Shown piece by piece: positions 14,684 through 44,039 of a stretch of 64,000 nucleotides of DNA. Both the position numbers and the translations under genes were made by a program. Location: positions 1,116,001 through 1,180,000 of the forward strand of contig LVKA01000008.1 of NCBI GenBank assembly GCA_001709035.1, in the 5' to 3' direction. A model generated the notes under the pieces. That model saw nothing but the letters and a program-made list of their open reading frames with translations. It did not search any database and was not told where the DNA came from. The stretch comes from Candidatus Thiodiazotropha endoloripes. Its GTDB lineage: Bacteria > Pseudomonadota > Gammaproteobacteria > Chromatiales > Chromatiaceae. Position 1 is the stretch's first letter. Each line of letters opens with the position of its first letter.

Positions 14684-14758
14684 GGCCTGTTAACACGAAT
14701 CCAACAAGTCCTGCTGGGCGCAAAAAAAAACCTGAATGGTGGTTACTCTAACCCTATT

Positions 14759-14820
14759 TGGTGGGGCATGGCCCCACCCTACACCTTAAAATCAATGTAG
14801 GGTGGGGCCATGCCCCACCA
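14759..14820. repeat. 25-bp perfect inverted repeat (GGTGGGGC element), copy 1
   Basis: Arms 14759-14783 and 14796-14820 are exact reverse complements with a 12-nt loop; each arm also contains its own small palindrome around GGGGC/GCCCC. A related element is at 43634-43729, just before yajC. It sits directly between tgt and the convergent apbE gene and could also form a bidirectional transcript-end hairpin. Confidence 0.9.
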
Positions 14821-14826
14821 AAGACG

Positions 14827-15807
14827 CTAATGCTTATCCAGACTATCCAGTCCTGAGGAGGTCAACAGCTCTCTCTGCTGGTTGATGATAATCGCCTCCA
14901 CATCGTCAAGACGATTGATCAGGACCAGGCCGGCCTCGGCCCCCAGGACAAAAATACTGGTTGATAGGGCATCGGTACGCAGTGCGTTTGCACCGAGAAT
15001 GGTGACGCTCTGAACGTCCTTCGCGGAGTGGCCAGTCTTCGGACTGATGATGTGGTGATATCTGACTCCATCGGTCTCAAAAAAACGCTCATAATCACCA
15101 GAGGTTGAAACCGCACTGTCGGTGAGAGGAAGCACGGCAGCCATGGCCTGCTTTTTCCTCGGCGCCTGAATGCCGATATGCCAGGGCCTGCCCCGATGGT
15201 CACCGATCAACCGGCTGTCACCGCCGGCACTGATCAGGGCATGTTCGATCGCTCTTTCACGTAGCAGTGCGATGCCCCGGTCAACGGCATAGCCTTTGGC
15301 GATTCCCCCCAGATCGATCTTCACCCCCTTGCGCAGGAAGCGGACCGTGTTGTGCTTGGGGTCGAGCTCAATGTGTCGATAGTCGATGAGCGGCAGGGTT
15401 TGCCGGGTGCGTTGCTGATCGGGCTTTTGGCCTGTTCGGTAGTCGTATTGGTGACCGATCGAGGCGAAGGTGATATCAAATGCACCGCCAGTCAATTCAG
15501 CATATTTGCGGGATTCCTGCAGTAGATAAAACAACTCAGCGGAAATGTCGATGGCTGACTCTGCAGCCAGCCGGTTGACCAGGGAGAGTTCACTGTCGCT
15601 TTTGTAGGGGCTCAGTTTTCTATCCAGTCGTTTGAACTCATCGAATACAGCGGTAATCGCCAACTCACCCAGCGTCGTGTCTTCATGCCACAGTTCGACG
15701 CTTATCCGGGTGCCCATGATGTCGGCCTGCTGACTGAGCCATTCAGCCTGGCTCAATGCCGGTAGCAGCAGCCACAGCAGAAGCAGACCTAATGCTATCC
15801 TAATCAT
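14827..15807 (-). CDS. apbE: FAD:protein FMN transferase ApbE
   Basis: A 326-residue exported protein with a Sec signal peptide (ending near LSQAEW). It carries ApbE hallmarks: IMGTRISVELW, KIDLGGIAKGYAVD, ISAGGDSRLIG and DALSTSIFVLG near the C-terminus. ApbE uses FAD to attach FMN covalently to a Ser/Thr in a short target motif, often S/T-G-A-T/S. It is the last gene of the motor operon, 40 bp after the AgmX/TonB-like gene, whose linker contains SGAT. It is not a lipoprotein, unlike many ApbE proteins, since no lipobox Cys is present. Known electron-transport partners such as nqr or rnf genes are not in the window. Confidence 0.93.
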   Translation of the reverse strand: MIRIALGLLLLWLLLPALSQAEWLSQQADIMGTRISVELWHEDTTLGELAITAVFDEFKRLDRKLSPYKSDSELSLVNRLAAESAIDISAELFYLLQESRKYAELTGGAFDITFASIGHQYDYRTGQKPDQQRTRQTLPLIDYRHIELDPKHNTVRFLRKGVKIDLGGIAKGYAVDRGIALLRERAIEHALISAGGDSRLIGDHRGRPWHIGIQAPRKKQAMAAVLPLTDSAVSTSGDYERFFETDGVRYHHIISPKTGHSAKDVQSVTILGANALRTDALSTSIFVLGAEAGLVLINRLDDVEAIIINQQRELLTSSGLDSLDKH

Positions 15808-15847
15808 GGTTTAGCCGTTGTGCTGTGAGCCGAGCAACCGGATTGAC

Positions 15848-16819
15848 TTAAGAGGGCAGGAAGTCGATCGGATAGGATACAACGGCGGTCTCCACATCCT
15901 TGCTGGCAAACTTGAACAGTTTGATGCGTGAGACCAACTTGCGTTCCAGTTTCGGATTGTTAAGTTCCGAAGAGATGATCCGGCAATTGCTCACCTTACC
16001 CGCAGGGGTGATGGTCAACTCGAGGACGACTTTGCCACGTAACGAGGGATCTTTACGCAACGCCCGATTGTAGAGGGCGTAGACCGCCCCCTTGTTCTGG
16101 TCAAACACCAGTTGAATCTCTTCCCGGGTACGATTGCCTTTGTGGTTCTTACCCTTGGCTCCGCGATTGTTTGCCGCAGCCTCACTGCCCTGGGTGATAT
16201 CCTTGCTCTCCACTTGAGTGGTGGCACGGTTACTCAGACCACTGCCCCCTGTCTCACGACTGAGTGCTGCGGTATTGATACCGCCACTGCCTTTGGTTGC
16301 GCCAGAGGAGATGATCGAGCGTTGACTGGTGTAGGTCTTGCGTCCCTCTTTGGAGAGTTTCTGAGCACCACGGACACTCGATACCACCGGATCTTCCCGC
16401 AGATCGGCCAGTTGATCGGCGAATGCCAGCAAGCCTGAGCTGGCCGCTTTTTTACGCACCTCTTCTGCCGAGGGTTTTTTCTTCGCGATTTTCTCAACCG
16501 GTTTCTTCTCCGGTTCAGGTTTTTTCTTGACCTCCGGCTTCTTCTCCTTCTTAGGCTTCGGTTTGGGCAGCTCCTTTTTGACAATCTTTTTCGGTTTTGG
16601 TGGTGGTGCCTGTTTCTGTTCCAGTATCAACCTTGCCAGACGGGGTGGCAGGGTCTGTTTCTTGAAGCGCTCCTTTTCCGGTAGCTGAATCATGGGAACC
16701 AACAGCCCCAGGATCATCGCAATCATCAGAGCAGATACAATAATCAGATGAAATCGACGTTCATCTGCACTGGTATTGTTCCAGGGTAGATTAGAGGAAT
16801 GTCGGTAAGAGACGCTCAC
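15848..16819 (-). CDS. AgmX/PglI- and TonB-like energy transducer
   Basis: A 323-residue protein with one N-terminal helix (about residues 24-45), a long lysine/proline-rich spacer (about 60-120) typical of TonB-type proteins that span the periplasm, and a C-terminal AgmX/PglI-type domain (about 225-323: LRGKVVLELTITPAGKVSNC, ending YPIDFLPS). It would be driven by the ExbB/TolQ and ExbD proteins encoded upstream. Its start overlaps the ExbD stop by 4 bp. The spacer contains SGAT at residues 172-175, a possible FMN attachment site given the adjacent apbE, although the Asp three residues ahead in the classic motif is missing. AgmX-type proteins occur in the Myxococcus gliding (Agl/Glt) machine. 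Confidence 0.82.
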   Translation of the reverse strand: MSVSYRHSSNLPWNNTSADERRFHLIIVSALMIAMILGLLVPMIQLPEKERFKKQTLPPRLARLILEQKQAPPPKPKKIVKKELPKPKPKKEKKPEVKKKPEPEKKPVEKIAKKKPSAEEVRKKAASSGLLAFADQLADLREDPVVSSVRGAQKLSKEGRKTYTSQRSIISSGATKGSGGINTAALSRETGGSGLSNRATTQVESKDITQGSEAAANNRGAKGKNHKGNRTREEIQLVFDQNKGAVYALYNRALRKDPSLRGKVVLELTITPAGKVSNCRIISSELNNPKLERKLVSRIKLFKFASKDVETAVVSYPIDFLPS

Positions 16820-17328
16820 AGGGGCTGCCCTCCCTTTTGCTGCTCTGCTTTTCTAAGCACAGCCAGGGAGACACGGGGATACTCGGATTGTGCACAGGTG
16901 GCCATGACCCGCTTCAGTAAAGCGTAGGGAATACCTTTATCACCCATGATGGTGATTGCCCCTTTGAAGGATTCAATGCTACTGCTTTTGGAACGCTCGG
17001 CATGACGCTGCAGTTCATTCTGCAAGGCCGGAAGCAGGTTACCTTCCGGTAGTGGCTGGGAGAGGTCGATGACCCGATGTCCCTGCACCAGTATCTCTCG
17101 TTGATTGACCATCACCACCAGGTTTTCCTTGGGTTTCACATCCGCCAGTGATTCAGGCAGACTCAGGGCCTTGGCATTGGGCAATACTTGTACCTCGCCG
17201 GAATTGACCAGCAGAAAGAACACCAGGATGGTGAAGATATCCATCAGTGAGACCAGGTTCAGTACCGCTGATCCTTTATTCCTTCGGTGGTGGCGATCCA
17301 TGCGTTTAGCACGACGCGACATCTTCAT
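16816..17328 (-). CDS. ExbD/TolR-family protein (second copy)
   Basis: A 170-residue protein with a basic N-terminus, one membrane helix (about 22-42: LVSLMDIFTILVFFLLV) containing the proton-path Asp of ExbD/TolR, and a periplasmic domain. It overlaps both neighbours by 4 bp. Together with the first copy and the TolQ-like gene it makes a motor with two different ExbD subunits, as in Myxococcus AglR-AglQ-AglS. Confidence 0.88.
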   Translation of the reverse strand: MKMSRRAKRMDRHHRRNKGSAVLNLVSLMDIFTILVFFLLVNSGEVQVLPNAKALSLPESLADVKPKENLVVMVNQREILVQGHRVIDLSQPLPEGNLLPALQNELQRHAERSKSSSIESFKGAITIMGDKGIPYALLKRVMATCAQSEYPRVSLAVLRKAEQQKGGQPL

Positions 17329-17843
17329 GAGGCGTTACCTTCATCCATTTTCGGAGCTTGGCTGGGTGGTGCGTCTCCCAGAGAGATCTCTGGAAAAAGC
17401 TCATATTGGATCACCGATCCAGACTCGACATTTTCAGTCATGCGTACAGCATCCATGACTTGAACCATGGTTTCGTAGTTGGTTTCCGGTTCAGAGAGAA
17501 TGAACACACTGCGTTTGTCCTGAAAACGGACTTTGATCTGTACCAGCAATTCATTCAGCGCCTTTACATCATACCCATCCGCACTATTCGGGATACGACG
17601 GATCAAGCCTCCCTGTCGATCGGCAACTTCCAGACTCTCTTTTCGAATGATCACTTCCAGCTGAAGCTCTTTGATCTGTTTCAGTGTGCCTTCACTGGCA
17701 GGCGGCAGATAGAGCTCAATAATGGAAAAGCGGGAAAACGCCGCCGTGATCAGCAGAAAAGGAATCAGGATCACCATCAGGTTAAGAAAAGCGGTGATAT
17801 TCAGTTCCGCTTCTTTGTGATGGTGGCGAAACCGGCCTCTCAT
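17325..17843 (-). CDS. ExbD/TolR-family protein (first copy)
   Basis: A 172-residue ExbD-like protein: short N-terminus rich in His/Arg, one helix (about 15-38, ITAFLNLMVILIPFLLITAAF) and a periplasmic domain. The helix has Asn (FLNLMV) where the proton-carrying Asp normally is (the second copy keeps D in SLMDIF), so this copy may have a structural role. It overlaps the TolQ-like gene and the second ExbD by 4 bp each, indicating tight stoichiometric coupling. Confidence 0.87.
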   Translation of the reverse strand: MRGRFRHHHKEAELNITAFLNLMVILIPFLLITAAFSRFSIIELYLPPASEGTLKQIKELQLEVIIRKESLEVADRQGGLIRRIPNSADGYDVKALNELLVQIKVRFQDKRSVFILSEPETNYETMVQVMDAVRMTENVESGSVIQYELFPEISLGDAPPSQAPKMDEGNAS

Positions 17844-24688: not shown

Positions 24689-25082
24689 GATGTCATTTCC
24701 CGGGTCATGAATAAAACTGTGTAATGAAGAAACAAATCTATATGAATTAGTGTGTTGCGTTTGCGATCATAGTCACAGGTTGATCTTGGAAGTTGGTAAA
24801 AAATGCCCAAACAAGCAAATCATATGTGATGTTGCCGGTAATCGCTACGATTTGCTGATGATTCGGGTTTGCAACTGAAACTGGCTTAGGGCCCTGTGCA
24901 ATCTTAACTGATCGCGATTACACAAGTATTGGTTGAATTTATTATAAAAACTAGGGTCATAGCCGTTACGTAGTTTGTGATTGTATGCAATAGTTAGCAG
25001 ACAGTCGCATATGAATAAGAACTAACTCCTTGTCGATCGCCGTCGTGTTGATCGGCCAGCACAATGTCTGTTGCATTGCTTC
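24689..25082. other. Divergent intergenic region, no gene seen
   Basis: About 390 bases of lower GC content between the minus-strand motor operon and the plus-strand DUF3187-type gene. It must hold both promoters. AT-rich stretches around 24935-24960 (TTTATTATAAAA) could be part of one. No ORF, repeat or hairpin with a T run was seen. Confidence 0.4.
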
Positions 25083-26120
25083 ATGGTTAAAACTAACCGG
25101 TTCTGTCAGTCCTGGGAAGAAAATTCCCTTTTGTTGATCATTTTTTGGTCAATCTTGCTGCTTTGTTCGACAATGACCGGGGTGGCTCAGGCCAGCCAGC
25201 CGGAGCCTTTTCATGTGCGCAACATGAATCCCTTCACCCTGTTGCATGGTCTTCCGGTGGCCACACCCTCCGAATTGCTTGGTGATCAACAAAACAGCCT
25301 CAGCCTGCAGTTGGATGTGGCCAACACCTCGATGGAGACCGTTGAGGAGAGTGAGCAGGTGACGCTGGATGGGGAGACCTACCGGCTGGCCCTGACCTGG
25401 CAACGGGGCATAGGTTCCGGATGGCAGGTGGGTGTCGAAGTGCCCTACCTCTCTCATCGGGGAGGCGGCCTGGACAGCCTGATCGAAAACTGGCACGACC
25501 TGTTTGGTTTTTCCAATTCGGACCGGGATGACTGGCAGCAGAATCAGTTGCGTTATCTCTATATCCGGGATGGTGTGACTGAAGTCGATATCCAGGAGAA
25601 GGTCAGTGGTATCGGCGATATACAGTTTCACCTCTCCCGGGAACTGAGTCTGGCGGATGAAGAGATGAGAGCTTCCGTACATATGGGCTTGAAGCTGCCT
25701 AGCGGGGATGAGGAGTCACTGCTGGGGAGCGGTGCACCTGACCTGTCGATCTGGCTTACGGGTTCCGATCGCAAATTACTTCCCGGTTGGCCCTTTGGCG
25801 GGTATGGCCATATGGGTGTGTTGTTGATGGGTAAGGCGGAGGTCCTTGAGGAGGATCAGCGAGAGTTTGTGTTGTTCGGAACCCTGGGAATCAACTGGCG
25901 GGTCTATCAATGGTTGGACCTGAAGGCCCAGGTCGATGCCCATACCCCGTTTTATCACAGCAGCTCGGATCAGCTGGGCGGCTCAGCGGTAATGCTGACA
26001 TTCGGCGGAACCATTCCTTTGGAGGGTGGTGATCATATCGATCTCTCGCTGGGGGAGAACATGACCACCGATATGGTGCCGGACCTGATTTTCAACATCC
26101 GCTATGAAGCCAGGTTCTAA
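25083..26120 (+). CDS. DUF3187-like outer-membrane protein
   Basis: A 345-residue protein with an N-terminal hydrophobic signal (LLLIIFWSILLLCSTMTGVAQA). The mature part begins with the recognisable pattern FHVRNMNPFTLLHGLP and alternates beta strands, ending in an aromatic residue (YEARF), as expected for an outer-membrane barrel. DUF3187 proteins are of unknown function. The ATG at 25083 is taken over a TTG at 25071; neither has a strong Shine-Dalgarno. Monocistronic, convergent with lgt. Confidence 0.75.
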   Translation: MVKTNRFCQSWEENSLLLIIFWSILLLCSTMTGVAQASQPEPFHVRNMNPFTLLHGLPVATPSELLGDQQNSLSLQLDVANTSMETVEESEQVTLDGETYRLALTWQRGIGSGWQVGVEVPYLSHRGGGLDSLIENWHDLFGFSNSDRDDWQQNQLRYLYIRDGVTEVDIQEKVSGIGDIQFHLSRELSLADEEMRASVHMGLKLPSGDEESLLGSGAPDLSIWLTGSDRKLLPGWPFGGYGHMGVLLMGKAEVLEEDQREFVLFGTLGINWRVYQWLDLKAQVDAHTPFYHSSSDQLGGSAVMLTFGGTIPLEGGDHIDLSLGENMTTDMVPDLIFNIRYEARF

Positions 26121-26142
26121 ACCGGAATAGCGTTTACTGCCG

Positions 26143-26961
26143 TCAGTCTGCCTGCTGATCTGTTTTGTCTCGGCTTCTTCGGAGCGCCAATATGATCAAT
26201 ACAACACCGGCGGCGATAAAGGGCAGGCTGAGAATCTGTCCTGTGCTCAACATGACATCGGTGGTGTAAGCGGCTTGTTTGGATTTAACAAATTCAACCA
26301 GAAACCGGGTGGTGAAAACGCCAATCAGAAACATCCCGAAGATCAGTCCATCCTCAATCTTCAGGCGCATGCGTCGGTAGAACAGCATCAGTACGACAAA
26401 GATCAGCCCATAGCCTATCGCCTCATAGAGCTGTGCCGGGTGGCGGGGAATCTGGTCGATTCGCTCGAAGATAAAGGCCCAGGGGAGATTGGTCGGGGTG
26501 CCGTAGATTTCCGAATTAAACAGATTTCCCAGACGAATCAGCATGCCCACCAGCGCAGTTGGTATGGCAAAGCGGTCGAGTAGCCAGAGAAAAGTCTCAC
26601 CGGACTGGCGTTTGTGGATGTAGAGCGCGAGGATTACCCCGAGCCCTCCGCCATGACTGGCTAACCCCCCCTCCCAGAAGGCGAGTATCTTCCACGGATT
26701 AGCCAGAAAATAGGCTGGATCATAAAGCAGGCAGTGGCCCAGCCTGGCACCGGCAATCGTCGCAATCACCAGATAGATGGAGAGGCGTTCCAGGTGCGCG
26801 GCATCCCGCCCATCATTTTGATAGATCCAATAGATGGTCTGATAGCCCAGAAGATAGGCCAGTGCGAAGAGCGCGCCGTACCAGCGAATCTCCAGCCCGG
26901 CAAAGGCAATCAGTGTGGGATCGGTATTCCAAACGATGAAATCGAGGGCTTGTTGCTCCAT
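26143..26961 (-). CDS. lgt: Prolipoprotein diacylglyceryl transferase Lgt
   Basis: A 272-residue, seven-helix inner-membrane enzyme that transfers diacylglycerol from phosphatidylglycerol to the Cys of prolipoproteins. Hallmarks are EIRWYGALFALAY, the FWEGGLASHGGGLG motif, RLGNLFNSEIYG and PRHPAQLYEA. It matters here because many window proteins are predicted lipoproteins. It lies 42 bp after the spermidine-synthase-like gene and likely ends the pcm-speE-like-lgt operon. Confidence 0.96.
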   Translation of the reverse strand: MEQQALDFIVWNTDPTLIAFAGLEIRWYGALFALAYLLGYQTIYWIYQNDGRDAAHLERLSIYLVIATIAGARLGHCLLYDPAYFLANPWKILAFWEGGLASHGGGLGVILALYIHKRQSGETFLWLLDRFAIPTALVGMLIRLGNLFNSEIYGTPTNLPWAFIFERIDQIPRHPAQLYEAIGYGLIFVVLMLFYRRMRLKIEDGLIFGMFLIGVFTTRFLVEFVKSKQAAYTTDVMLSTGQILSLPFIAAGVVLIILALRRSRDKTDQQAD

Positions 26962-30327: not shown

Positions 30328-30430
30328 TAACTTTTCGATCTAACCGAAATGTGCAATCCTGATAACTTAAATATAGCTCGAAGTGAATCTGTGCAGTAAA
30401 TTCGTCTCAACAGGCCTTGGCAGTTGGGCG

Positions 30431-33562: not shown

Positions 33563-36040
33563 CTATTGCAGTAGCACTATGGCACTGCCCAGCAGTGAGG
33601 CACAGGCTGCCTTGGTTGCCTTTTCAGTTCGGTCCGCGGCACATTGACCGCTACAGCGGGCCAGTCCGACACTGCCGGTAAGCAGGCTCATCAATTCGCT
33701 CTCGACCATTGCAGGATCGGGTTGGGTGGTGAGATTCTCACCCATGAAATTGACGATCAGTGGGGATACCACCTGACTCTGCCAGGTCGCTGCAGCGATG
33801 TCGTTGGCGTTGACATTGAAATCGAATCCGGGGAAGAAGCCCGTTCTCAATGTGGTGTCGTCAACCATCGCGCTGCAGTATTCGATCGCCAGTTGCGAAA
33901 CAGCCACCTGATGGGATGAGAGAAAGCCGTTGATCGCTTCCGCTGAGGGCAGTTGTTGCTTGATGGTGGTATAGGTGGTCTGTACCGCTTCAAGGGTCTG
34001 ACTGACACCGGTGAGGGATGCCATGGTGGCGTTGATCTCATCGAAGGTGCGCAAGCCGACTGAGGAAGCCGGTTCACCATCAGACGGCTCTGCCGGGGGC
34101 AGTGCTTCAGGCTCTATGAAGACATTGGTGTGTTCACCCAGTCGCTCGAAGGTGAGGAAGAACTGATCGTTTTCCGAACCCTTCTCGGTGGCGATGGTGG
34201 TGCCGATGTTCGACAGCAACTGACCATTGAGCGTGTATTCCGAGTCGTTGATGGTGGTATCGAGGGTGGCATAGGCCTGACCAATGGCGGCCTCTTTACC
34301 ATTGATACCGATACGCATCCCCTGAATCGGAATCGAGCCCGGCAGCACGCTCTCATCCAGGCTGATGAACTTCGGCTGACGGAACAGGTAGCTGTAGTTA
34401 TCGAACTGGCTGACCTCGATCATCACATAGCTTTGAGGCAGGTTGAGCAGGCTGCTGACATTGAACAGCAGGAAGTACTTTTCACCAACACCCGCTTCGA
34501 AATTCTGTTGGATCTGTGCGGCATTCAATGCGCGGTTGTGGATTGCCAGCAGTCGCACCTTGCCCGCCCAGGGGCGATCGCCTGAGGCCTCATTTCCCAG
34601 TACCAGCGCGTAGGTGTCGTCCCAGTCGTTAAGATTGCCCGCTGCGGTCTCATCCAGGTCATCGGTGTGGATGCCGTTGACATAGACTTGGCGTCCATTC
34701 TCCGGGTCGAAAGTGACCACCACATGTTGCTCGGTGGCCTGCAGATCCTCGTCATCATCCGAAGTAGAGTGGGCTGGCTCACCGTTGCCGTCCGTGGTGC
34801 TGGAACGGTGCAGGAAGTTGTAGTTGTAGAGAGTCTGTCCCAGGGTGAAGTTGCGATCATCGGTACCTGCAGAGTAACTGATGATTCTGGCCGGACCCTC
34901 CTGGGTGACGTTGCTTGGCACTACCCAGGCCTCCACCGTATATTCACCGGTTGCCTGGATCAGCTGGCTGAGCTTGCGGCTGTCGCTGGTACTGCCTTGG
35001 GCCTTACCGGTTCTGAACTCCAGTCCCCAGCCTTCCACCCAGGTGGTGTCCCCACTCAGGGTCAGATTGATTGACGGATCCACACCGCTGGTGTCGTAGG
35101 CGGTGTTACCGCTGCCGGTTTTGAACTCATACAGTGCGATGACATCGTTCTCCTGGCGACTGCCGCCACTCGCCACCGTACCTTCCGGCAGGGTCAGCGC
35201 CCGACTCACCACCAGATCCGGGTCAACCGGAGTCGGCGAAATGCCGCTGGCCATGTCGTCGATCGCGGTCTCCATCTCCTGGGCATTGCTCGGGCAGTCA
35301 TCCCAGCAGTTGTGCAGCTCGATCAGACGTTGAACCAGACGGGAGTTGGATGGGGTATCGAGATCAATCGAAGTCTTGACAGCCGCATAGGCGGTCTCCA
35401 CATCCGCTGCGGCAAAATAGGGGGATTGGGGCGCAGCCGCATCATCAACGTGACATTCAGTGCAGTAGTCGGTCAGTAGCGGGTGGACATGACTGGCGAA
35501 CAGGCTTGAATCGTCCGGGAAGACCTTGCTTTCCCCAACCACGTTTTCCGGCGGGGCTTCCAGTTCGATCTGTCGGCCCGCATTGGCGCCACCACCAACC
35601 CAGGACTCGATGTAGTTGGCGATGATGGTGGCACAGGCGCTATCGCTGGCCTCCCAGCAGTTGTGTCCAGCAGCGACCTTGGTGACCAGGGAAGACTCAT
35701 CCGGTTCGCTGCGGTTGATAAAGGGATTGGCCGCCTCATAGGCCTGATTGACATCATCCTCGCGGACGAACAACGGTGCCTGACCACCGGCGTTGTGACA
35801 GGCGCCACATCGATTCTGTGCCCTCAAAGGCTCCCACACACTGACCCTGAACCCCTGTATATCACTGGTTCGGGCGGCCGGTCCGCTGTAGGTGCTGGAG
35901 GTGACCGTGGTCTCCTGCTGCGAATCGTTGGAGACCCCATCCTGGCACGCCTGCAGGCCGAACAGTGAGAGTGCCGTTAACAGCAGCCAGGTAGATCCGT
36001 TGATTCCCCGATGGTTTTTATATCCGTTTAACATGTTCAC
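33563..36040 (-). CDS. Lipoprotein with two CxxCH haem motifs and a LamG domain
   Basis: An 825-residue protein with a lipobox (LFGLQAC). Two c-type haem motifs lie in the N-terminal part: CGACH (about residue 79) and CTECH (about 194), each in a small helical unit resembling planctomycete-type cytochrome domains. A LamG/concanavalin-like jellyroll follows at about 330-530 (YTVEAWVVPSNVT, VYVNGIHTDDL, VRLLAIHNRALNAAQI). The C-terminal ~280 residues are of unknown type. Other Cys pairs (HNCWEASDSAC, HNCWDDC) may form disulfides. It is 3 bp from the preceding cytochrome gene. Probably an outer-membrane or surface electron carrier that also binds a polymer or protein ligand. Confidence 0.82.
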   Translation of the reverse strand: MNMLNGYKNHRGINGSTWLLLTALSLFGLQACQDGVSNDSQQETTVTSSTYSGPAARTSDIQGFRVSVWEPLRAQNRCGACHNAGGQAPLFVREDDVNQAYEAANPFINRSEPDESSLVTKVAAGHNCWEASDSACATIIANYIESWVGGGANAGRQIELEAPPENVVGESKVFPDDSSLFASHVHPLLTDYCTECHVDDAAAPQSPYFAAADVETAYAAVKTSIDLDTPSNSRLVQRLIELHNCWDDCPSNAQEMETAIDDMASGISPTPVDPDLVVSRALTLPEGTVASGGSRQENDVIALYEFKTGSGNTAYDTSGVDPSINLTLSGDTTWVEGWGLEFRTGKAQGSTSDSRKLSQLIQATGEYTVEAWVVPSNVTQEGPARIISYSAGTDDRNFTLGQTLYNYNFLHRSSTTDGNGEPAHSTSDDDEDLQATEQHVVVTFDPENGRQVYVNGIHTDDLDETAAGNLNDWDDTYALVLGNEASGDRPWAGKVRLLAIHNRALNAAQIQQNFEAGVGEKYFLLFNVSSLLNLPQSYVMIEVSQFDNYSYLFRQPKFISLDESVLPGSIPIQGMRIGINGKEAAIGQAYATLDTTINDSEYTLNGQLLSNIGTTIATEKGSENDQFFLTFERLGEHTNVFIEPEALPPAEPSDGEPASSVGLRTFDEINATMASLTGVSQTLEAVQTTYTTIKQQLPSAEAINGFLSSHQVAVSQLAIEYCSAMVDDTTLRTGFFPGFDFNVNANDIAAATWQSQVVSPLIVNFMGENLTTQPDPAMVESELMSLLTGSVGLARCSGQCAADRTEKATKAACASLLGSAIVLLQ

Positions 36041-36043
36041 TGA

Positions 36044-37237
36044 TCACTCTCCCGCACAATGGACGGCCGCTTGTGCGAACACGCTCTTCATGTTGTAACC
36101 GGATTTGAAACTGCTGGTAATTTCGGCGATCTTGCTGCGGTCCGCACTGTCCACCGGTGCACGCAGACAGACCGCCTGAAATGCCTTGGTGACCTGGCAC
36201 TCGGCAAACGCGTCGCTGTTGGCCAGCTCCTCGCCCATCGACTTGGCGCCGAAACCGGTACCCGGCAGGCTGCTGTCCCAGCCCAGGCTGGCATTTGGCC
36301 CCTCCCGCCAGTAGTTATCCCAGCGATCGTCCGGTGTGGCATAACCATCTTTGAATACTGAGCTGTTGATCAGAAACTTAGGCTGAACGCTGCCCGGGGT
36401 ATAGGCCAGAGCGCCGGTCTCCGGATCATCGGTATATTCAAAGTTGTAGTAGGCGTAGGCCTGTCCGAGGGGTTCCATACCGGCGTGGCAGCCGACACAG
36501 TTGTTAAAATAGACGCGGCTGTCACCACCTGGACTGCGCGATGCGTCCTGGCGTACACGGTCACTGGGGCGAGTTGGATCCTTGATCAGCTCCAGGTCCT
36601 TGCACAGATGGTTGAGCATGGTGAAGCGGAACATGCCCCGGTTGGTGCCATCGATGAAAAAGGCTCGCGCCGAGGCGCGGGTAGTGGTCACCCCAGCGGT
36701 GCCTTCAGGCGGCAGACCGGTGACACTCGATTGGGTGTTTTGCTGTAACACCTGTTTCAGATCGAGGCCCTGGTTTTCCATCGTCTCATAGTGATCGTTG
36801 TTACTGTTGGAGTAGGCTGGGGAGTTGCTGCCTGTGTAGATGATGTCCGCAGAGAGCAGCTGATTGAACGGTACCTCGTCGCGTACCATGCCGATCACGG
36901 TCGCCGTGTAGTCATTCAGGGGAGCAAAAGGGGTCTGGTCCTCATTGGTCCAGGGGGTCGCCCAGTTTTTCAGGGTAACGTTATAAAAACCCGGGTGTTC
37001 AATCGCCAACATGGCGGCGGCGAGCGGATCGTTGTTGTTATCGATCTCGTCGACCATTTGTGCCAGGGTATCGGCACTCGGGGGAACCCCGGCGATGCGA
37101 TCATGCATACGCTTTGCCTGTTCCCTGGGGCCGGAGACTGCCGGCATCATCGTGCTTAGCGTCAGAATCAACGCAACCACCTTTACCGATGTTGTTGTAA
37201 AGTTTTTTCGAGCCGCAGATGGGTGTGTTTCCGACAT
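36044..37237 (-). CDS. Exported single-haem cytochrome-like protein
   Basis: A 397-residue protein with an N-terminal hydrophobic signal (VVALILTLSTMMPAVSG). It has one haem-binding motif, CVGCHAGMEPLG (about residue 246), whose distal Met may be the second ligand; this form is seen in DUF1588/DUF1592-type planctomycete cytochrome proteins. First gene of the minus-strand operon (gap 3 bp to the LamG lipoprotein). It faces the divergent HzsA-like operon across a 288-bp promoter region, suggesting joint control. Confidence 0.78.
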   Translation of the reverse strand: MSETHPSAARKNFTTTSVKVVALILTLSTMMPAVSGPREQAKRMHDRIAGVPPSADTLAQMVDEIDNNNDPLAAAMLAIEHPGFYNVTLKNWATPWTNEDQTPFAPLNDYTATVIGMVRDEVPFNQLLSADIIYTGSNSPAYSNSNNDHYETMENQGLDLKQVLQQNTQSSVTGLPPEGTAGVTTTRASARAFFIDGTNRGMFRFTMLNHLCKDLELIKDPTRPSDRVRQDASRSPGGDSRVYFNNCVGCHAGMEPLGQAYAYYNFEYTDDPETGALAYTPGSVQPKFLINSSVFKDGYATPDDRWDNYWREGPNASLGWDSSLPGTGFGAKSMGEELANSDAFAECQVTKAFQAVCLRAPVDSADRSKIAEITSSFKSGYNMKSVFAQAAVHCAGE

Positions 37238-37525: not shown

Positions 37526-40165
37526 ATGAGACCAGTGAAATCCAAGCGGCTATTGAGTCCTCTGTTAGTGCTCTCAATGGTCATTTTGCTGTTCGGTTGC
37601 GGTGGCGGTGACAGTCAGGATCCAGACCCGGTGGTGGTCGACTATCCGGTCGCCTACGTCAAACGGCCGATCACGGAGGAGAGCACAACCGATATCCGGC
37701 TCAGTCAGGCCACCGAGACGGGTGGGGATCTCTACCTGAAAGACAATGCCTCTGCCGGGGCGGATGAGATCAATCTGACCGGAAATGTGACCGGCGGTGA
37801 AGGGGATGTACGGGATGTCTCGGTCTCATTTGATGGCATGAAACTGCTGTTCTCCCTGAGACTGCCGTTGATTGAGGATGCGGAGCCTGAGGATCAGCCC
37901 ACCTGGAATGTCTGGGAGTACGATATCCCGGCGGCACAACTGAGACGGGTGATTGTCTCCGATATCACGGCAGAGGATGGGCACGACCGTTTTCCCCACT
38001 ACCTGCCCGACGGACGCATCGTCTTCTCCTCGACCCGTCAGCGGCAGGCCAAGGCGCGTCTGCTGGATGAGGGCAAGCCACAATATCTGGCGATGGAACG
38101 GGCGGTGAATGAGCCGGCGATGGTGCTGCATGTGATGAATGCTGACGGTACCGACATCAACCAGATCTCATTCAACCGCAGTCATGACTTCTCACCCACG
38201 GTGATCTCCAGCGGCAAGATCGTATTCAGTCGTTGGGACAATGCGGACGGCAACAATGCGATTCACCTCTATCGCATCAACCCGGATGGTACCGAGCTGG
38301 AACTGCTGTATGGTCTGAACAGTCACGACACCGGTACCGACGGCAGCACCATTCAGTTCATGCGCCCCCAGGAGATGCCGGATGGCCGGATCCTTACGCT
38401 GATCCAACCTTTCGACGGAACCCAGGAGGGTGGGGCGCTGATCTTCATCGATGCCGAGACCTATATCGATAACGAACAGCCAACCTGGGACAACCAGGGG
38501 ATGACCGGGCCTGCCCAGAGCAATGCCACAAACCACGAAATTCCCACCGATGGTACGATCACCATGGGCGGACAGCTACGCAGTGCCCACCCCTTGTTCG
38601 ACAACACCGACCGGTTGCTGATCAGCTGGAGCCCCTGCCGTGTGATCGAGGATGAACGCATCGTTCCCTGCAACGATGAACGATTGGCCGATCCGGCCGT
38701 TGAGCAGGCGCCTCCCCTCTACAGCCTGTTCATCTACGATCCGTCGAAACAGACCCAACTGCCGATCGTGAAACCTCAGGAAGGGGTTATCTACAGCGAC
38801 GTGGTTGTGGCGGTTGAGCGTTCCGAGCCGCTGATCATCCATGACAAGACAGCCGGTATCGATCTGGATCCGACTCTGGTATCTGAGAAGGCGGGTCTAT
38901 TACGTATCCGCAGTGTTTATGACCTGGATGGTGTGGATAGCGCAGAGCCGGATATCGCTACCCTGTCCGACCCCACGCTGACCAGTGCCGACAATCGGCC
39001 GGCCCGCTTTCTGCGCCTGATCAAGCAGGTTACCCTGCCAGACGACGATGTGCTTGAGTTCTCCAACTCCGCCTTCGGCGCCACGGCTCAGTTCGGCATG
39101 CGTGAAGTGCTGGGCTATGCACCGATCGATCCCGATGGGTCGGTACAGGTCAAAGTCCCGGCCAATGTACCGGTCAGCTTCAGCGTACTCGACGCAGACG
39201 GTCGGCGTACCGGCGAGGTGCACAGTTTCTGGTTGCAGTTCAGGCCAGGTGAGGTGATCGAATGCGGCGGTTGCCATGCCGGCGACAGTCCACTGGCTCA
39301 TGGTCGTCTGACGGCGGCGCCACCCAGTGTGAACAGCGGCAGCCTGGAGACCGGACAGCCCTTCCCCAATACCAATCCGGAACTCTGGACCGATGTGGGC
39401 GAGACCATGGCTCAGACCCGCAATCGTCTGCAGTGTAGGGCCGGCTCCTGTGATCCGGAGTTGGATCTGGTGTTTGAGGATGTCTGGAGTGATCCTGCGA
39501 TGCGCCAGCCCGATTCGCCATTCACCTATCGGTACGCCGATCTGGACACTCCGAATCCACTCAATGATGCGCTCTGCACCTCCAGTTGGAATGAGCTGTG
39601 CCGTGCCATGATCCATTATGAGCGGCACATCCATCCGCTCTGGTCTCTATCCCGGCTGATACTGGACAATGAAGGGAATACCCTTGAGGATCGTACCTGC
39701 AATGTCTGTCACGATACGGACGATGCCGGCGAAACCGTGGTGCCCGATGCCCAGCTCGATCTGAGTGACGGCCCATCTGAAGATGAACCGGAACACTTCA
39801 GTGCCTATCGGGAGCTGCTGTTTGCCGATAACATGCAGGAGGTCGTGGATGGCCTGCTGGTGGATATATTGGTGCCTGCGGTGGACGAGAACGGAAATCA
39901 GCTGTTTGAAACGGATGAAAACGGGGAGCTGGTTCTTGATGGTGAGGGAAATCCGATCCCTCTGCCCGATGTTCCGGTGCCGGTGCCTGGCGGGGCCTCG
40001 ATGGTTGCGGGTTCTGCCAACGACAGCCGCTTTACCGAGGTTTTTGAAGTGGGTGGCGCGCATGCGGGCTATCTCACGGATGCGGAACTGAAACTGATCT
40101 ATGAGTGGCTGGATATCGGTGCGCAGTACTTCAATGATCCATTCCTTGCACCTGCGGATGACTGA
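37526..40165 (+). CDS. HzsA-like lipoprotein with beta-propeller and two haem motifs
   Basis: An 879-residue lipoprotein (lipobox ILLFGC followed by GGGDSQ). The N-terminal part has TolB/PD40-like propeller repeats (HYLPDGRIVFSSTRQ, GKIVFSRWDN, MRPQEMPDGRILTLIQPF). C-terminal CxxCH motifs are CGGCH (residue 580) and CNVCH (residue 725). Order and spacing match the alpha subunit of hydrazine synthase and its widespread relatives. There is no hydrazine synthase beta/gamma gene nearby, so anammox chemistry is not implied. It heads a plus-strand operon with two beta-barrels, a TlpA-like protein and DUF4266/DUF3570-type proteins, and probably donates or accepts electrons at the cell surface. Start ATG 37526 follows AAGGGAAC about 12 nt upstream. 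Confidence 0.8.
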   Translation: MRPVKSKRLLSPLLVLSMVILLFGCGGGDSQDPDPVVVDYPVAYVKRPITEESTTDIRLSQATETGGDLYLKDNASAGADEINLTGNVTGGEGDVRDVSVSFDGMKLLFSLRLPLIEDAEPEDQPTWNVWEYDIPAAQLRRVIVSDITAEDGHDRFPHYLPDGRIVFSSTRQRQAKARLLDEGKPQYLAMERAVNEPAMVLHVMNADGTDINQISFNRSHDFSPTVISSGKIVFSRWDNADGNNAIHLYRINPDGTELELLYGLNSHDTGTDGSTIQFMRPQEMPDGRILTLIQPFDGTQEGGALIFIDAETYIDNEQPTWDNQGMTGPAQSNATNHEIPTDGTITMGGQLRSAHPLFDNTDRLLISWSPCRVIEDERIVPCNDERLADPAVEQAPPLYSLFIYDPSKQTQLPIVKPQEGVIYSDVVVAVERSEPLIIHDKTAGIDLDPTLVSEKAGLLRIRSVYDLDGVDSAEPDIATLSDPTLTSADNRPARFLRLIKQVTLPDDDVLEFSNSAFGATAQFGMREVLGYAPIDPDGSVQVKVPANVPVSFSVLDADGRRTGEVHSFWLQFRPGEVIECGGCHAGDSPLAHGRLTAAPPSVNSGSLETGQPFPNTNPELWTDVGETMAQTRNRLQCRAGSCDPELDLVFEDVWSDPAMRQPDSPFTYRYADLDTPNPLNDALCTSSWNELCRAMIHYERHIHPLWSLSRLILDNEGNTLEDRTCNVCHDTDDAGETVVPDAQLDLSDGPSEDEPEHFSAYRELLFADNMQEVVDGLLVDILVPAVDENGNQLFETDENGELVLDGEGNPIPLPDVPVPVPGGASMVAGSANDSRFTEVFEVGGAHAGYLTDAELKLIYEWLDIGAQYFNDPFLAPADD

Positions 40166-40168: not shown

Positions 40169-40924
40169 TTGAGACGGTTTAGTAAAATTCCATTGCGCAT
40201 CGGCGGGCTGCTGCTCGGGCTATTGCTTTCCTGGCCAATGCTGGCGGAAGAGACACCGATGCGGGTACAGGTCTTTGCCCCTTTTATCGAGATGCATACC
40301 GGTCCAGGAGCGGTCTATCCTGTCCACCATGTGGCCGAACGGGATGAGTGGGTGGTGATTCACAAGCGTCGCACCGACTGGTTTCTGGTGGAGACCCGCA
40401 GAGGCAAGCAGGGTTGGGTGGCGATCGATGAGATGCGCCAGACCCGCCTGGAGGATGGTACCCCTTTACCGTTGACGGCCTACTCCGAGAAAGATTTTCG
40501 TGATCGTACCTGGGAGTTCAGTTTCTACGGCGGTGACATGGAAGGTGCGGCCCTGCTGGGACTCTACGCGGGTTATGCCTTTAACGAGAATCTTTCCACC
40601 GAGGTCAGCTTCTCCCAGGCGCTCGGGGACTTCTCCAGTGAGTATCTGTTTGATGTCAATCTGGTGTCCCAGCCCTTTCCGGAGTGGACATTCAGCCCCT
40701 TCTTCACCCTTGGCGGTGGTGTGATCCGCACCAACCCAAACGCTACCCTGGTGGAGACTGAGGACCGTACAGACACTACCGCCCATGTGGGTGCCGGATT
40801 GAAGGTCTATATGACCAGGCGTTTCTTCCTTCGCGGGGAGTTTCGTCACTATGCCGTATTTACCAGTCGTGATGAGAATGAGGATTTTGACCAGTGGAAA
40901 ATCGGACTCGGTTTCTTTTTCTGA
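40169..40924 (+). CDS. SH3 domain plus outer-membrane beta-barrel protein
   Basis: A 251-residue protein starting with TTG three bases after the previous stop, so translation is likely coupled. A signal peptide (IGGLLLGLLLSWPMLAEE) is followed by a bacterial SH3 domain (about 30-85: FIEMHTGPGAVYPV, GKQGWVAI) and an eight-stranded-type beta-barrel (about 110-251) ending in the outer-membrane signature GLGFFF. The SH3 part probably faces the periplasm and the barrel sits in the outer membrane. Confidence 0.8.
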   Translation: MRRFSKIPLRIGGLLLGLLLSWPMLAEETPMRVQVFAPFIEMHTGPGAVYPVHHVAERDEWVVIHKRRTDWFLVETRRGKQGWVAIDEMRQTRLEDGTPLPLTAYSEKDFRDRTWEFSFYGGDMEGAALLGLYAGYAFNENLSTEVSFSQALGDFSSEYLFDVNLVSQPFPEWTFSPFFTLGGGVIRTNPNATLVETEDRTDTTAHVGAGLKVYMTRRFFLRGEFRHYAVFTSRDENEDFDQWKIGLGFFF

Positions 40925-41559
40925 GTACAGCAGCCCTGCTGGGTCTGTTTAACCTCTCTACCGGCCAGGCGGAGGAGCAGCTGCTTGGCGAAAACCTGCG
41001 TGAAGAGTTGCTGGTGGAGCCCGAGATCGCCCGTCGGGAGATCACCGAACCCAATTTCGATGAAGAGGATTTTGAGATCGGAGTGTATGCCGGGCTGATG
41101 AACATCGAGGATTTCGGTACCAGCGCCGCCTATGGTTTGCGGCTCGCCTATCATGGTACGGAGTCGATCTTTCTTGAGGCGGCCATTGGCACTTCCGAAG
41201 CCAACGAAACCAGTTATGAGCAATTGAGCGGCGATGTTCAGCTGCTCACCGACAGTGAGCGTCGCTTTACCTATTACAATCTCTCCGCCGGTTACAATAT
41301 TCTACCCGGAGAGGTATTTCTCGGCGGCAAGTATGCCTATAACAGTCAGTTCTATCTGATTGGCGGGATCGGCACGACACGCTTTGCCGGGGATGATGAA
41401 TTCACTGTGAATGTGGGTGCAGGCTATCGCTTGCTGATTAATGATTGGCTGACCATCCATCTCGATGCCAGGGATCACATGTTCGAATCGGATTTGCTCG
41501 GCGAGAGCAAAACCACCCATAACTTCGAACTCACCGGTAGCCTGAGCTTTTTCTTTTGA
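40894..41559 (+). CDS. Outer-membrane beta-barrel protein
   Basis: A 221-residue protein from a GTG inside the 3' end of the previous gene (31-bp overlap in another frame). No later start would keep the signal peptide (LFLSTAALLGLFNLSTGQAEE). A short acidic linker precedes a beta-barrel of about 160 residues ending SLSFFF. It appears to be a diverged tandem relative of the upstream barrel. The large overlap is unusual and suggests obligate co-expression. Confidence 0.78.
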   Translation: MENRTRFLFLSTAALLGLFNLSTGQAEEQLLGENLREELLVEPEIARREITEPNFDEEDFEIGVYAGLMNIEDFGTSAAYGLRLAYHGTESIFLEAAIGTSEANETSYEQLSGDVQLLTDSERRFTYYNLSAGYNILPGEVFLGGKYAYNSQFYLIGGIGTTRFAGDDEFTVNVGAGYRLLINDWLTIHLDARDHMFESDLLGESKTTHNFELTGSLSFFF

Positions 41560-41571: not shown

Positions 41572-42090
41572 GTGAAGATGAACTCCTTGCTGTTGAAGCG
41601 AATCTTGAAATCCACCCTGCTGCTTGGTCTGCTGACCAGCTTCACGGTTTCACTCGCCGCCACGGGCGACACCACCCCGGCACCGGACTTCACCCTGAAG
41701 AGCCGTAGTGGGGAGAACATCAAACTGAGTGAACTGCGGGGCAATGTGGTGATGGTCAATTTCTGGGCCTCCTGGTGCGGTCCATGCCGTCAGGAGATGC
41801 CTTTGTTGCAACAGCTCTATGATCGCTACCAGGGGATGGGATTCACCCTGCTTGGGGTCAATGTGGATGAGCAGCCAGCCGCAGCACAGAAGATGCTGAA
41901 AGAGATTCCGGTCGACTTCCCGATCCTCTACGACAGCAGCAACCAAGTGAGTAAACAGTATCAGGTGAAAGCGATGCCCAGCACCTTTATGGTGGACCGG
42001 GATGGCAACATCCGGCATCTGCATCAAGGTTACAAACCTGGATACGAAGATGACTATCAGCAGCAGATCCGGGCATTGCTGAAAGAGTGA
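41572..42090 (+). CDS. TlpA/ResA-like thiol:disulfide protein
   Basis: A 172-residue exported thioredoxin-fold protein: hydrophobic signal (LLGLLTSFTVSLAA), entry motif PAPDFTLKS, the redox site WCGPC, and the cis-Pro region KAMPSTFMVDRDG. A GTG at 41572 has GAGG 10 nt upstream; an ATG at 41578 is the alternative. Periplasmic reductants of this type keep CxxCH cysteines reduced for haem attachment, which fits the haem proteins of this cluster. Its stop overlaps the upstream region of the DUF4266-type gene. Confidence 0.9.
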   Translation: MKMNSLLLKRILKSTLLLGLLTSFTVSLAATGDTTPAPDFTLKSRSGENIKLSELRGNVVMVNFWASWCGPCRQEMPLLQQLYDRYQGMGFTLLGVNVDEQPAAAQKMLKEIPVDFPILYDSSNQVSKQYQVKAMPSTFMVDRDGNIRHLHQGYKPGYEDDYQQQIRALLKE

Positions 42091-42101
42091 GGCAAGTTGT
42101 C

Positions 42102-42326
42102 ATGTTAACCAATCATCGTCTGCTGCCGGTTTTGCTTCTGCTGGCGCTCAGCGGATGCAGTATCGAGCCTTGGGTGCAACCCTATGAACGGGCGCGCCTG
42201 GCGGATCCGATCATGAGCTTCGAGCGGGATCCGGTAGCCAACGGATTCCGTCACCATGTCTACCAGACCAGAGAGGCGGCCCGTGGCGCCGAAGGTGGTG
42301 GAGGAGGCGGCTGTGGCTGTAATTAA
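42102..42326 (+). CDS. DUF4266-like small lipoprotein
   Basis: A 74-residue lipoprotein: signal with lipobox LALSGC, then the conserved WVQPYERARLADPIM and a C-terminal run of glycines ending GCGCN. The ATG at 42102 has GAGG about 9 nt upstream; an upstream GTG at 42087 overlaps the TlpA stop. DUF4266 genes typically sit next to DUF3570 genes, as here. The YERARLADPIMxF pattern is the family core. Function unknown; the Gly/Cys tail may bind metal or take part in disulfides. Confidence 0.82.
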   Translation: MLTNHRLLPVLLLLALSGCSIEPWVQPYERARLADPIMSFERDPVANGFRHHVYQTREAARGAEGGGGGGCGCN

Positions 42327-43497
42327 GCCTCGTGCGCTGACACAAAGGATCGCTTCGCTGCTCTCTTCCGGTCGTCTCTGGCTGCTGCTGATGCTGGTGT
42401 CTCTGCCCGGATTCAGTCTGTTTGCCACGGTCCTGCCGGAGGATCGGGCCGACGTCATGTACCACCGTTACGATGGAGGCGGTGTCGAGGTGGATGGTCC
42501 CTCGATCCTGGTGCGTAAATCGGTGATGGATACGGTTTCATTGAGCGCCAACTACTATGTGGACTCGATCTCCAGTGCCTCTGTGGATGTGGTCTCCACC
42601 GCTTCGCCTTACACCGAAGAGCGCACCGAGAGCAGCCTCTCACTGGACTATCTGCACAACAAAACCCTGATGAGTCTGGCGTTGACCAAAAGTGACGAGA
42701 GCGACTATCTCTCCGAGACCGGCAGCGTCAGCATCAGCCATGACATGTTCGGCGATCTGACCACTGTCTCCCTGGGCTACTCGGTTGGCAATGACGATAT
42801 CAGTCGTAATGGGGATGCGGATTTCGGTGATCAGGTGAAACGCCAGAACTACCGGGTAAGCCTGAGTCAGATCTTGACCAAGAACACGATTCTGGGGGTT
42901 GGTTGGGAGACCATCACCGATGAGGGTTTTCTCAACAACCCCTATCGCTCCTATCGTTATCTGGATCCCCTGGCCGGGAATGGCTTCAGCTATCTGCCGG
43001 AGGTCTATCCACGTACCAGAACCAGCAACGCGCTGGCATTCAGGTTGAAATACTACCTGCCGTATCGGGCGGCTCTGAGCAGTGAGTATCGCTACTTCAA
43101 CGATACCTGGGGTATTGACGCCAACAATTTCGAGCTGGCCTATACCCACCCATTCAGGGAGAAGTGGATCTTCGATATTCGCTACCGCTACTACACACAG
43201 GATGGGGCCGATTTCTACAGTGATCTGTTCTCCCGGCGCGCCCCCCAGACCTACCTGGCGCGGGATAAAGAGTTGAGCAGTTTTCAGAGCCATACCCTGG
43301 GGCTGGCGATGAGCTATGAGATCAAACCGGGCTTCCTGCAGTTCGTCGATCGCGGCACACTCAATCTGGCCTATGACTACATCCGCTTCAACTACGACGA
43401 TTTCCGCGACCTGACCCGGGGTGGGGTAGTCGGCGAAGAGCCCTTCTACTCCTTCTCCGCCAATGTGATCAAGGCTTATGTCTCGATCTGGTACTGA
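42313..43497 (+). CDS. DUF3570-like outer-membrane beta-barrel
   Basis: A 394-residue protein with a signal-like hydrophobic stretch (LWLLLMLVSLPGFSLFA) and a mature part full of alternating aromatic strands (YHRYDGGGVEVDGPSILV at the start; ending FSANVIKAYVSIWY) as in outer-membrane barrels. I place the start at the GTG 42313 with GGAGG 8 nt upstream, overlapping the DUF4266 gene by 14 bp; an ATG at 42256 would add an odd extension. Last gene of the HzsA-like operon. Pairs with the DUF4266-type lipoprotein by family association. Confidence 0.8.
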   Translation: MAVIKPRALTQRIASLLSSGRLWLLLMLVSLPGFSLFATVLPEDRADVMYHRYDGGGVEVDGPSILVRKSVMDTVSLSANYYVDSISSASVDVVSTASPYTEERTESSLSLDYLHNKTLMSLALTKSDESDYLSETGSVSISHDMFGDLTTVSLGYSVGNDDISRNGDADFGDQVKRQNYRVSLSQILTKNTILGVGWETITDEGFLNNPYRSYRYLDPLAGNGFSYLPEVYPRTRTSNALAFRLKYYLPYRAALSSEYRYFNDTWGIDANNFELAYTHPFREKWIFDIRYRYYTQDGADFYSDLFSRRAPQTYLARDKELSSFQSHTLGLAMSYEIKPGFLQFVDRGTLNLAYDYIRFNYDDFRDLTRGGVVGEEPFYSFSANVIKAYVSIWY

Positions 43498-44039
43498 TAC
43501 CTGAATCAATTGGGTGCGGCTCTGCCGCACTTCCAGTCCGGCTTCAGCCACGATCGTTTAAAGGGATTGGCCTACAGTTTGTCAGAGAATAAACCGCAAA
43601 TGAACGCGAATCACCGTAAAATGTCGCGAATAGTCGTAGGGTGGGGCCCTGCCCCACCATGAGAGGCAAAAGAACCGCAAGTTTTTTCCGGTTTTAACCA
43701 TTTCGGTGGGGCTGGGCCCCACCCTACGATTGGGGGAGAGGGCTTTTGATACTGATATCAAGGATGATTGTGAGTAAACGGACCGCAATGATTTGATCCA
43801 GGTTTAACACTGTTATATTCAGCTTACCGGTCTCTGTCGGTTCAATGTAAACACCTCATCATCTGATTCATCAACTTCCCCGCAAGATGAGAGTAGGATC
43901 TGAAAACGGTAATCAAAACCCTGCAACCCCTGATTCTTGCACGCTTCTGTGTCATAATCGGCGGCTGAATTTTTCTGCCCGGTGCAGCCACAACTGAGCT
44001 GGGCTGACTTTTTATATCCCCATTGAGAGGTTGATAGCG
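43498..44039. other. Intergenic region before yajC with repeat element
   Basis: About 540 bases without a credible gene. It holds the second GGTGGGGC palindromic element at 43634-43729. The promoter of yajC-secD-secF should lie in the right part; CATAAT near 43953 is a possible -10 box but no matching -35 stands out. Confidence 0.45.
43634..43729. repeat. GGTGGGGC inverted repeat, copy 2
   Basis: Arms 43634-43658 and 43705-43729 are reverse complements with only one mismatch in 25 bp; the loop is 46 nt. The arm core TAGGGTGGGGCC is shared with the element at 14759-14820, so both belong to one repeat family. Each arm also contains a small internal palindrome. Confidence 0.85.

What the first reader, a model, noticed from the sequence alone, without database searches (positions are those of the whole stretch)
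14684..44039. A 29-kb block splits tgt from yajC and is bounded by related palindromic repeats
In most gammaproteobacteria queA-tgt-yajC-secD-secF are adjacent. Here tgt ends at 14683 and yajC starts at 44040. The repeat at 14759-14820 lies just inside the left end, and a related repeat with the shared core TAGGGTGGGGCC lies at 43634-43729 near the right end. No other copy of this repeat was noticed in the window. The two copies bracket the block, which suggests insertion or rearrangement by recombination between repeats. The block carries the motor operon, the haem/beta-barrel cluster and lgt.
Basis: partly seen in the sequence, partly recalled or inferred. Interest (0 to 1): 0.7.

Follow-up and report, generated by a model that had tools for sequence, protein, structure and literature searches.

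The report
Motor-plus-haem gene block in clam symbionts
The 29-kb stretch is a real insertion, shared by a whole genus of clam symbionts and unrelated to the two repeats beside it; most of it is a recurring gene set that pairs a proton-driven cell-envelope motor (related to the one Myxococcus uses for gliding) with haem and redox proteins of the cell surface.

Summary
The 29-kb block between tgt and yajC is real, and so are both palindromes. All 12 genomes of the genus (Candidatus Thiodiazotropha, inferred) with tgt and yajC on one contig carry the block there in the same gene order. In six other genera of the family the two genes touch. So the block was gained before the genus radiated.

The palindromes are not its ends. 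Their core occurs 67 times in the genome as REP doublets, with a REP-associated transposase; neither edge has one in 7 of the 12 genomes.

The block's conserved part is 16 genes: an Agl/Glt-type motor (ExbB, two ExbD, TonB-like, three TPR proteins), ApbE, thioredoxin, three outer-membrane barrels, haem proteins and a Tat protein. Outside the genus 6 of 15 loci read hold all 16. Of 275 gammaproteobacterial genomes, 41 have the HzsA-like gene; 40 of these also have the large TPR gene, within 19 kb in 28. Where the motor genes are missing beside it, 4 of 5 genomes carry a second complete motor locus. Papers of 2011 and 2013 give this motor no known function in gammaproteobacteria. A powered surface redox machine is my inference.

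The parts
12248..14683 (+). queA (12248-13288) and tgt (13577-14683): left flank
   Evidence: Pfam PF02547, PF01702
14757..14822 (.). left REP doublet (REPIN-like); later arrival, not a block end
   Evidence: two REP hairpins here, one in G008 and G011, none in G002
14827..15807 (-). apbE, FAD:protein FMN transferase
   Evidence: PF02424, 282.7 bits
15848..16819 (-). tonB/GltG-like energy transducer with AgmX/PglI C-terminal domain
   Evidence: NF033768 73.4 bits, cut-off 40; PF03544 21.4, below cut-off 24.6
16816..17843 (-). two ExbD genes (16816-17328, 17325-17843), AglQ/AglS-like
   Evidence: PF02472
17840..18490 (-). exbB (MotA/TolQ/ExbB channel), AglR-like
   Evidence: PF01618
18885..24155 (-). 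three TPR genes: tprA (18885-19538, GltE-like), tprB (19492-22320, called GltD-like here), tprC (22317-24155, called GltC-like here)
   Evidence: TPR families; NF033758 GltE 43.1 bits, cut-off 225. The GltD and GltC labels rest on size, order and context.
25071..26961 (.). duf3187 (25071-26120 +) and lgt2 (26143-26961 -), a second Lgt: genus-specific filling
   Evidence: PF11383, PF01790; not found in 15 loci outside the genus
27004..31786 (-). spermine-synthase-like membrane protein, PCMT, M1 peptidase lipoprotein: subclade insert
   Evidence: in 4 of 12 genus members read
31969..33540 (-). orf523, Tat-exported protein of unknown family
   Evidence: no Pfam match; twin-arginine motif in 9 of 9 homologues
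33563..36040 (-). lamG lipoprotein with two CXXCH haem motifs
   Evidence: PF13385; both motifs in 10 of 10
36044..37237 (-). orf397, one CXXCH
   Evidence: motif in 10 of 10; weak PSD2/PSCyt2 similarity below cut-off
37526..40165 (+). hzsA-like lipoprotein: beta-propeller, HZS-alpha middle domain, two CXXCH
   Evidence: PF18582 55.3 bits; PDB 5c2v 4.7e-08
40169..41559 (+). two outer-membrane barrels (omp 40169-40924, orf221 40894-41559)
   Evidence: TIGR04565: orf221 167.8 bits over cut-off 60; omp 41.6 below it
41572..42090 (+). tlpA, thioredoxin-like
   Evidence: PF00578
42256..43497 (+). duf3570 outer-membrane barrel, motor-linked subtype
   Evidence: PF12094; model pLDDT 72.9, barrel
43634..43729 (.). 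right REP doublet (REPIN-like); later arrival, not a block end
   Evidence: matching repeat in G011 and G013, absent in G002 and G008
44040..47250 (+). yajC, secD, secF: right flank
   Evidence: PF02699, PF02355

Best explanation
The block is a set of genes gained once, between tgt and yajC, by the ancestor of the genus, and kept there since. Its core is a recurring 16-gene envelope system. A proton-driven Agl/Glt-type motor (ExbB, two ExbD, a TonB/GltG-like arm) in the inner membrane pushes or assembles, through TPR proteins of the periplasm and outer membrane, an outer-membrane and surface complex made of three barrels (duf3570, omp, orf221), haem-bearing lipoproteins (HzsA-like, LamG), orf397 and a Tat-exported protein, with TlpA and ApbE as redox partners. 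Shown: gene content, synteny, recurrence with the motor's TPR gene, haem motifs, the genus-wide insertion. Inferred: physical coupling, energy transfer to the surface module, and a redox task at the surface. The two palindromes are REP doublets that landed later in the two long intergenic gaps.
For: Genus-wide block: 12 of 12 genomes with both flanks on one contig; of the other ten, six link tgt to tprB and yajC to hzsA on separate contigs, one shows the yajC side only, three are uninformative. Uninterrupted flanks in other genera. One unit in G048, another family, with its own intact tgt-yajC. Complete 16-gene set in 6 of 15 loci read outside the genus. Of 275 genomes, 41 have hzsA and 67 have tprB at 400 bits or more; 40 have both, and in 28 they share a contig 5.3-18.8 kb apart, in 21 families. 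The low-scoring DUF3570 subtype lies within 25 kb of tprB in 32 of 50 cases, the high-scoring type in 0 of 49. Haem motifs conserved. In 4 of 5 genomes without motor genes at the redox locus, a second complete motor locus exists, which fits the shared AglRQS motor reported for Glt and Nfs (PMC3858216).
Against: No experiment. Nine of 15 loci are incomplete: five lack exbB, both exbD, tonB and apbE in the neighbourhood read, two lack orf523, lamG and orf397, G051 lacks hzsA and others, L093 is a short contig. G090 has neither motor genes within the 12 kb or so read nor a second strong tprB locus. Twelve genomes have hzsA and tprB on different contigs and G068 has hzsA alone. 22 of 67 tprB genomes lack the DUF3570 subtype, so the motor has other uses. 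The flavinylation motif is absent in strict form from 14 of 16 DUF3570. Two other genomes of the family also have tgt and yajC apart inside contigs (G027, G023), so separation alone is not rare.
Confidence: 0.6

Rival explanations
1. The block was inserted or moved by recombination between the two palindromic repeats.
For: Repeats lie near both edges in G000 and G011.
Against: Same block without a repeat at either edge in 7 of 12 genomes; repeat dispersed at 39 sites; empty left site in G002, whose block is otherwise alike.
Confidence: 0.03
2. The system is ancestral to the family, was lost in the other genera, and was moved next to tgt in this genus.
For: Part of the motor operon (tprB, tprA, exbB, exbD) lies on a short contig of G029 in the same family.
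Against: The HzsA-like gene has no close match in the 13 other-genus genomes of the family; G026 and G032 match only weakly over a propeller stretch.
Confidence: 0.25
3. The motor and the redox genes are functionally unrelated and merely often neighbours, for example as co-transferred cargo.
For: Five of 15 loci lack the channel genes, and gene order varies. The motor core occurs without the redox genes in many genomes.
Against: 40 of 41 hzsA genomes have tprB (not corrected for relatedness). TPR genes stay at the redox locus even where the channel genes are elsewhere.
Confidence: 0.2
4. A gliding-motility machine like that of Myxococcus.
For: AgmX/PglI domain and TIGR04565 barrels.
Against: [quoted passage not shown] The partners here are haem and redox proteins.
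Confidence: 0.07

Closest known systems
Agl/Glt (and Nfs) core complex, PMC3169522 and PMC3858216
   Same: ExbB-like channel, two ExbD, TonB-like arm, TPR proteins in one cluster; standalone in gammaproteobacteria; one motor serving two assemblies (one search is compatible).
   Different: The window's TonB-like protein has no FHA match, whereas the paper's table gives M. xanthus GltG one; haem, flavin and thioredoxin partners and barrels are added. The passages I read do not mention these partners.
DUF3570-ApbE-thioredoxin flavinylation clusters, PMC8238504
   Same: ApbE, DUF3570 and a thioredoxin-like protein together.
   Different: A low-scoring DUF3570 subtype with Ser in place of the motif Gly; no DUF4266 seen; linked to the Glt-type motor. 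'ExbB', 'LamG' and 'hydrazine synthase' do not occur in that paper's main text.
Hydrazine synthase alpha (NF052339, PDB 5c2v)
   Same: Middle domain and a CXXCH.
   Different: 46.8 bits against a cut-off of 800; no other HZS subunit seen in the block.
REPIN/RAYT elements, PMC3116915 (abstract and outline seen)
   Same: Inverted REP doublets outside genes, and a RAYT gene flanked by REPs.
   Different: Nothing notable; new family members.

Membership tests
REPIN/RAYT | short palindromes as inverted doublets, dispersed | tested here: met
   67 core matches, most in inverted pairs about 28 nt apart
REPIN/RAYT | outside genes | tested here: met
   none of the 30 matches examined (of 67) lies in an ATG ORF of 100 aa or more
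REPIN/RAYT | cognate RAYT next to REPs | tested here: met
   NF047646 194.5 bits, cut-off 80; REPs on both sides. Across relatives, REP number does not follow close RAYT copies strictly
Agl/Glt core complex | one MotA/TolQ/ExbB channel and two ExbD proteins | tested here: met
Agl/Glt core complex | GltG-type TonB-like protein | tested here: met
   AgmX/PglI domain NF033768 over cut-off in the window and in 3 of 3 other loci scanned; the GltG equivalog itself is below its cut-off (42.4 of 650)
Agl/Glt core complex | GltC, GltD, GltE TPR proteins | tested here: inconclusive
   three TPR proteins; GltE 43.1 of 225 bits; no GltC or GltD model match seen
Agl/Glt core complex | grouping with Agl/Glt in gene trees | not tested
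   no Myxococcus sequences compared
ApbE/DUF3570 flavinylation system | ApbE, DUF3570 and thioredoxin-like protein together | tested here: met
   window and 8 of 15 other loci have all three
ApbE/DUF3570 flavinylation system | [ST]GA[ST] motif in DUF3570 | tested here: not met
   2 of 16 in the motor-linked type (window lacks it); 17 of 20 in the high-scoring type
ApbE/DUF3570 flavinylation system | DUF4266 protein | tested here: inconclusive
   none in the block ORFs scanned; ORFs under 100 aa were not scanned
Hydrazine synthase alpha | equivalog score | tested here: not met
   46.8 of 800 bits

The most novel reading that the evidence does not exclude
The standalone Agl/Glt core complex of gammaproteobacteria, without known function since 2011, is in a large part of its carriers the power source of a surface redox machine: proton-driven, haem- and perhaps flavin-bearing, with a motor that can be shared between two assemblies in one cell. 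It would be an undescribed class of energised envelope system.
Probability: 0.4. Interest if true: 0.8.

Novelty: new variant of a known kind. Interest (0 to 1): 0.55.

Why it matters
[quoted passage not shown] A conserved partner set of haem, thioredoxin, ApbE and outer-membrane proteins gives that question testable candidates. For the genus, it shows that a clam-symbiont lineage gained and kept such a system next to the Sec genes. It also shows that two repeats at the edges of a block need not be its cause.

Tried and rejected
Repeat-mediated insertion: rejected. Genomic island by integrase at a tRNA: no tRNA or Rfam match near the edges (one tRNA-Leu at 8742-8828) and no integrase or transposase among the block ORFs scanned. 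GC content is no guide: block 54.8%, left 50.6%, right 54.0%. Plasmid carriage: no plasmid record covers 80% of the HzsA-like protein; four match about half of it at 23-25% identity. The fold of orf523: model unusable, mean pLDDT 37.6. DUF3570 fold search: outer-membrane barrels of many kinds, TM-scores below 0.5 for the query in the 50 listed matches, so no specific function. In one search I took the wrong side of tgt for G009 and G013, and the wrong side of yajC for G009; those rows are disregarded. Rows dropped before counts: four weak HzsA-like genomes of 45 (G100, G142, G228, G255; best hits 24-37 bits); tprB hits under 400 bits (253 of 275 genomes have some hit, mostly generic TPR; four lower fragments were kept as neighbours); 18 DUF3570 rows under 47 bits; secondary fragments of HzsA-like genes. 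The 400-bit and 160-bit thresholds were set after seeing the lists. Gene lists were copied by hand. The hypergeometric value ignores relatedness.
Full report
What is there. tgt ends at 14683 and yajC starts at 44040; between them lie two runs of envelope genes and a middle part. Both palindromes exist as described.

Is the block an insertion? I compared tgt and yajC in 56 genomes. In the genus (22 genomes with this one), 12 have both genes on one contig, and all 12 show a gap of 23.8-29.7 kb. Six more (G001, G007, G009, G013, G017, G021) link tgt to tprB and yajC to hzsA on separate contigs, G018 shows the yajC side only, and G006, G012 and G015 are uninformative. In the other genera of the family ten genomes have both genes found: six have them 0.09-0.18 kb apart (G024, G028, G029, G030, G031, G032), G027 has them about 218 kb apart on one contig, and G023, G025 and G034 on different contigs. 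In the class outside the family, 16 of 19 genomes with both have them under 0.5 kb apart; G044 has 5.2 kb between them, G037 and G050 different contigs. I read five of the adjacent genera further: queA-tgt-yajC-secD-secF is uninterrupted in G024, G030, G031 and G032, and tgt-yajC-secD-secF in G028; in G024, G030 and G031 the order also continues downstream as in the window. Upstream of queA the window's neighbours are not conserved there.

Same content across the genus. The 12 contiguous genomes share one order: tgt, apbE, tonB, exbD1, exbD2, exbB, tprA, tprB, tprC, duf3187, (lgt2), (spdS, pcmt, m1pep), orf523, lamG, orf397, hzsA, omp, orf221, tlpA, duf3570, yajC. spdS-pcmt-m1pep occur in 4 of 12 (G000, G002, G008, G011). 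The second lgt is missing from G005 and G014 here, and from G015 and G018 by genome search.

The repeats. The core occurs 67 times in the genome, with 0 to 100 copies in genus relatives. Most form inverted doublets. One group flanks a REP-associated tyrosine transposase. None of the 30 matches examined lies in an ATG ORF of 100 aa or more. In the 12 genomes, the 8-base core is absent from both edges in 7 (G002, G003, G004, G005, G010, G014, G020), and present at both only in G000 and G011. In the alignment of close relatives the left site is empty in G002, a single REP in G008 and G011, and a doublet here; the right one is found in G000, G011 and G013, not in G002 or G008. So these are later arrivals in long intergenic gaps.

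What the conserved part is. In G048, of another family, all 16 core genes lie in one 21.6-kb run while tgt-yajC is intact elsewhere. In the class, 275 genomes were searched. tprB at 400 bits or more: 86 loci in 67 genomes. The HzsA-like gene: 41 genomes after dropping four weak ones. 40 of 41 have both; 28 have them on one contig, 5.3-18.8 kb apart, in 21 families; 12 have them on different contigs, where contig ends and true separation were not told apart; G068 lacks tprB. DUF3570 falls in two score groups: 50 low-scoring, of which 32 lie within 25 kb of tprB, and 49 high-scoring, of which none do. Of 42 HzsA-like loci, 37 have a low-scoring DUF3570 within 10 kb. Reading 15 loci (14 genomes and the contig L093): omp, orf221 and duf3570 are in 15, hzsA in 14, tlpA in 14, tprB and tprC in 14, exbB-exbD-exbD-tonB in 9, lamG and orf523 in 9, orf397 in 10, apbE in 8; the complete 16 in 6. 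In five (G158, G225, G090, G231, G114) the channel genes are missing beside the TPR genes. Four of these five have a second tprB locus with exbB, both exbD and tonB; G090 does not. That recalls Myxococcus, where AglRQS serves both Glt and Nfs (PMC3858216: sections 7 and 20 and the outline read).

Chemistry. HzsA-like: the first CXXCH is kept in 15 of 15, the second in 14 of 15 (L093 has two extra residues inside it). LamG: both in 10 of 10. orf397: one in 10 of 10. orf523: a twin-arginine motif in 9 of 9. TprA, tprB, lamG, hzsA and m1pep have lipobox-like N-termini (my reading), which may explain a second lgt. DUF3570 is a predicted barrel. PMC8238504 (passages read) shows DUF3570 flavinylated at [ST]GA[ST]. 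The motor-linked type mostly has Ser where that motif has Gly, with the acceptor Ser/Thr kept; whether it is flavinylated is open.

Mechanism. I infer an inner-membrane proton-driven motor acting through TPR proteins on a haem-bearing outer-membrane and surface complex. The substrate and the direction of electron flow are unknown.

Is it in print? Ten paper searches were made: eight bear on the system or the genus, one found the Glt evolution paper and one the REPIN papers. None listed a paper that joins the Agl/Glt core with DUF3570 or HzsA-like proteins. The library lacks most subscription papers, and supplementary tables (for example the gene-cluster lists of PMC8238504) could not be opened.

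Noticed in passing
26143-26961: A second, divergent Lgt inside the block; the ordinary-looking lgt is elsewhere (G000:C10:403427). The block copy is in 18 of 22 genus genomes.
   Followed up: partly
27004-31786: spdS-pcmt-m1pep, a smaller insert in the block of 4 of 12 genus genomes (the four closest).
   Followed up: partly
G000:C18:212484-213734 (L132): A high-scoring DUF3570 with an SGAS motif elsewhere in the genome; a REP doublet lies about 2.4 kb away.
   Followed up: no
G158, G225, G231, G114 (L162-L166): Second motor loci in genomes whose redox-linked TPR set lacks motor genes.
   Followed up: yes
G055, G053, G041 (L094-L101): Motor core loci in genomes where no DUF3570 or HzsA-like gene was found; other partners probably exist.
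   Followed up: no
genus genomes: REP copy number varies from 0 to 100 between species and does not follow close RAYT copies strictly (G016, G019 and G021 have many REPs but no close RAYT).
   Followed up: partly
G027 and G023 (L071, L072, L076, L077): tgt and yajC also lie apart in two other genera, apparently independently.
   Followed up: no
L093: A contig titled Rhodospirillales carries the HzsA-like to DUF3570 genes.
   Followed up: no
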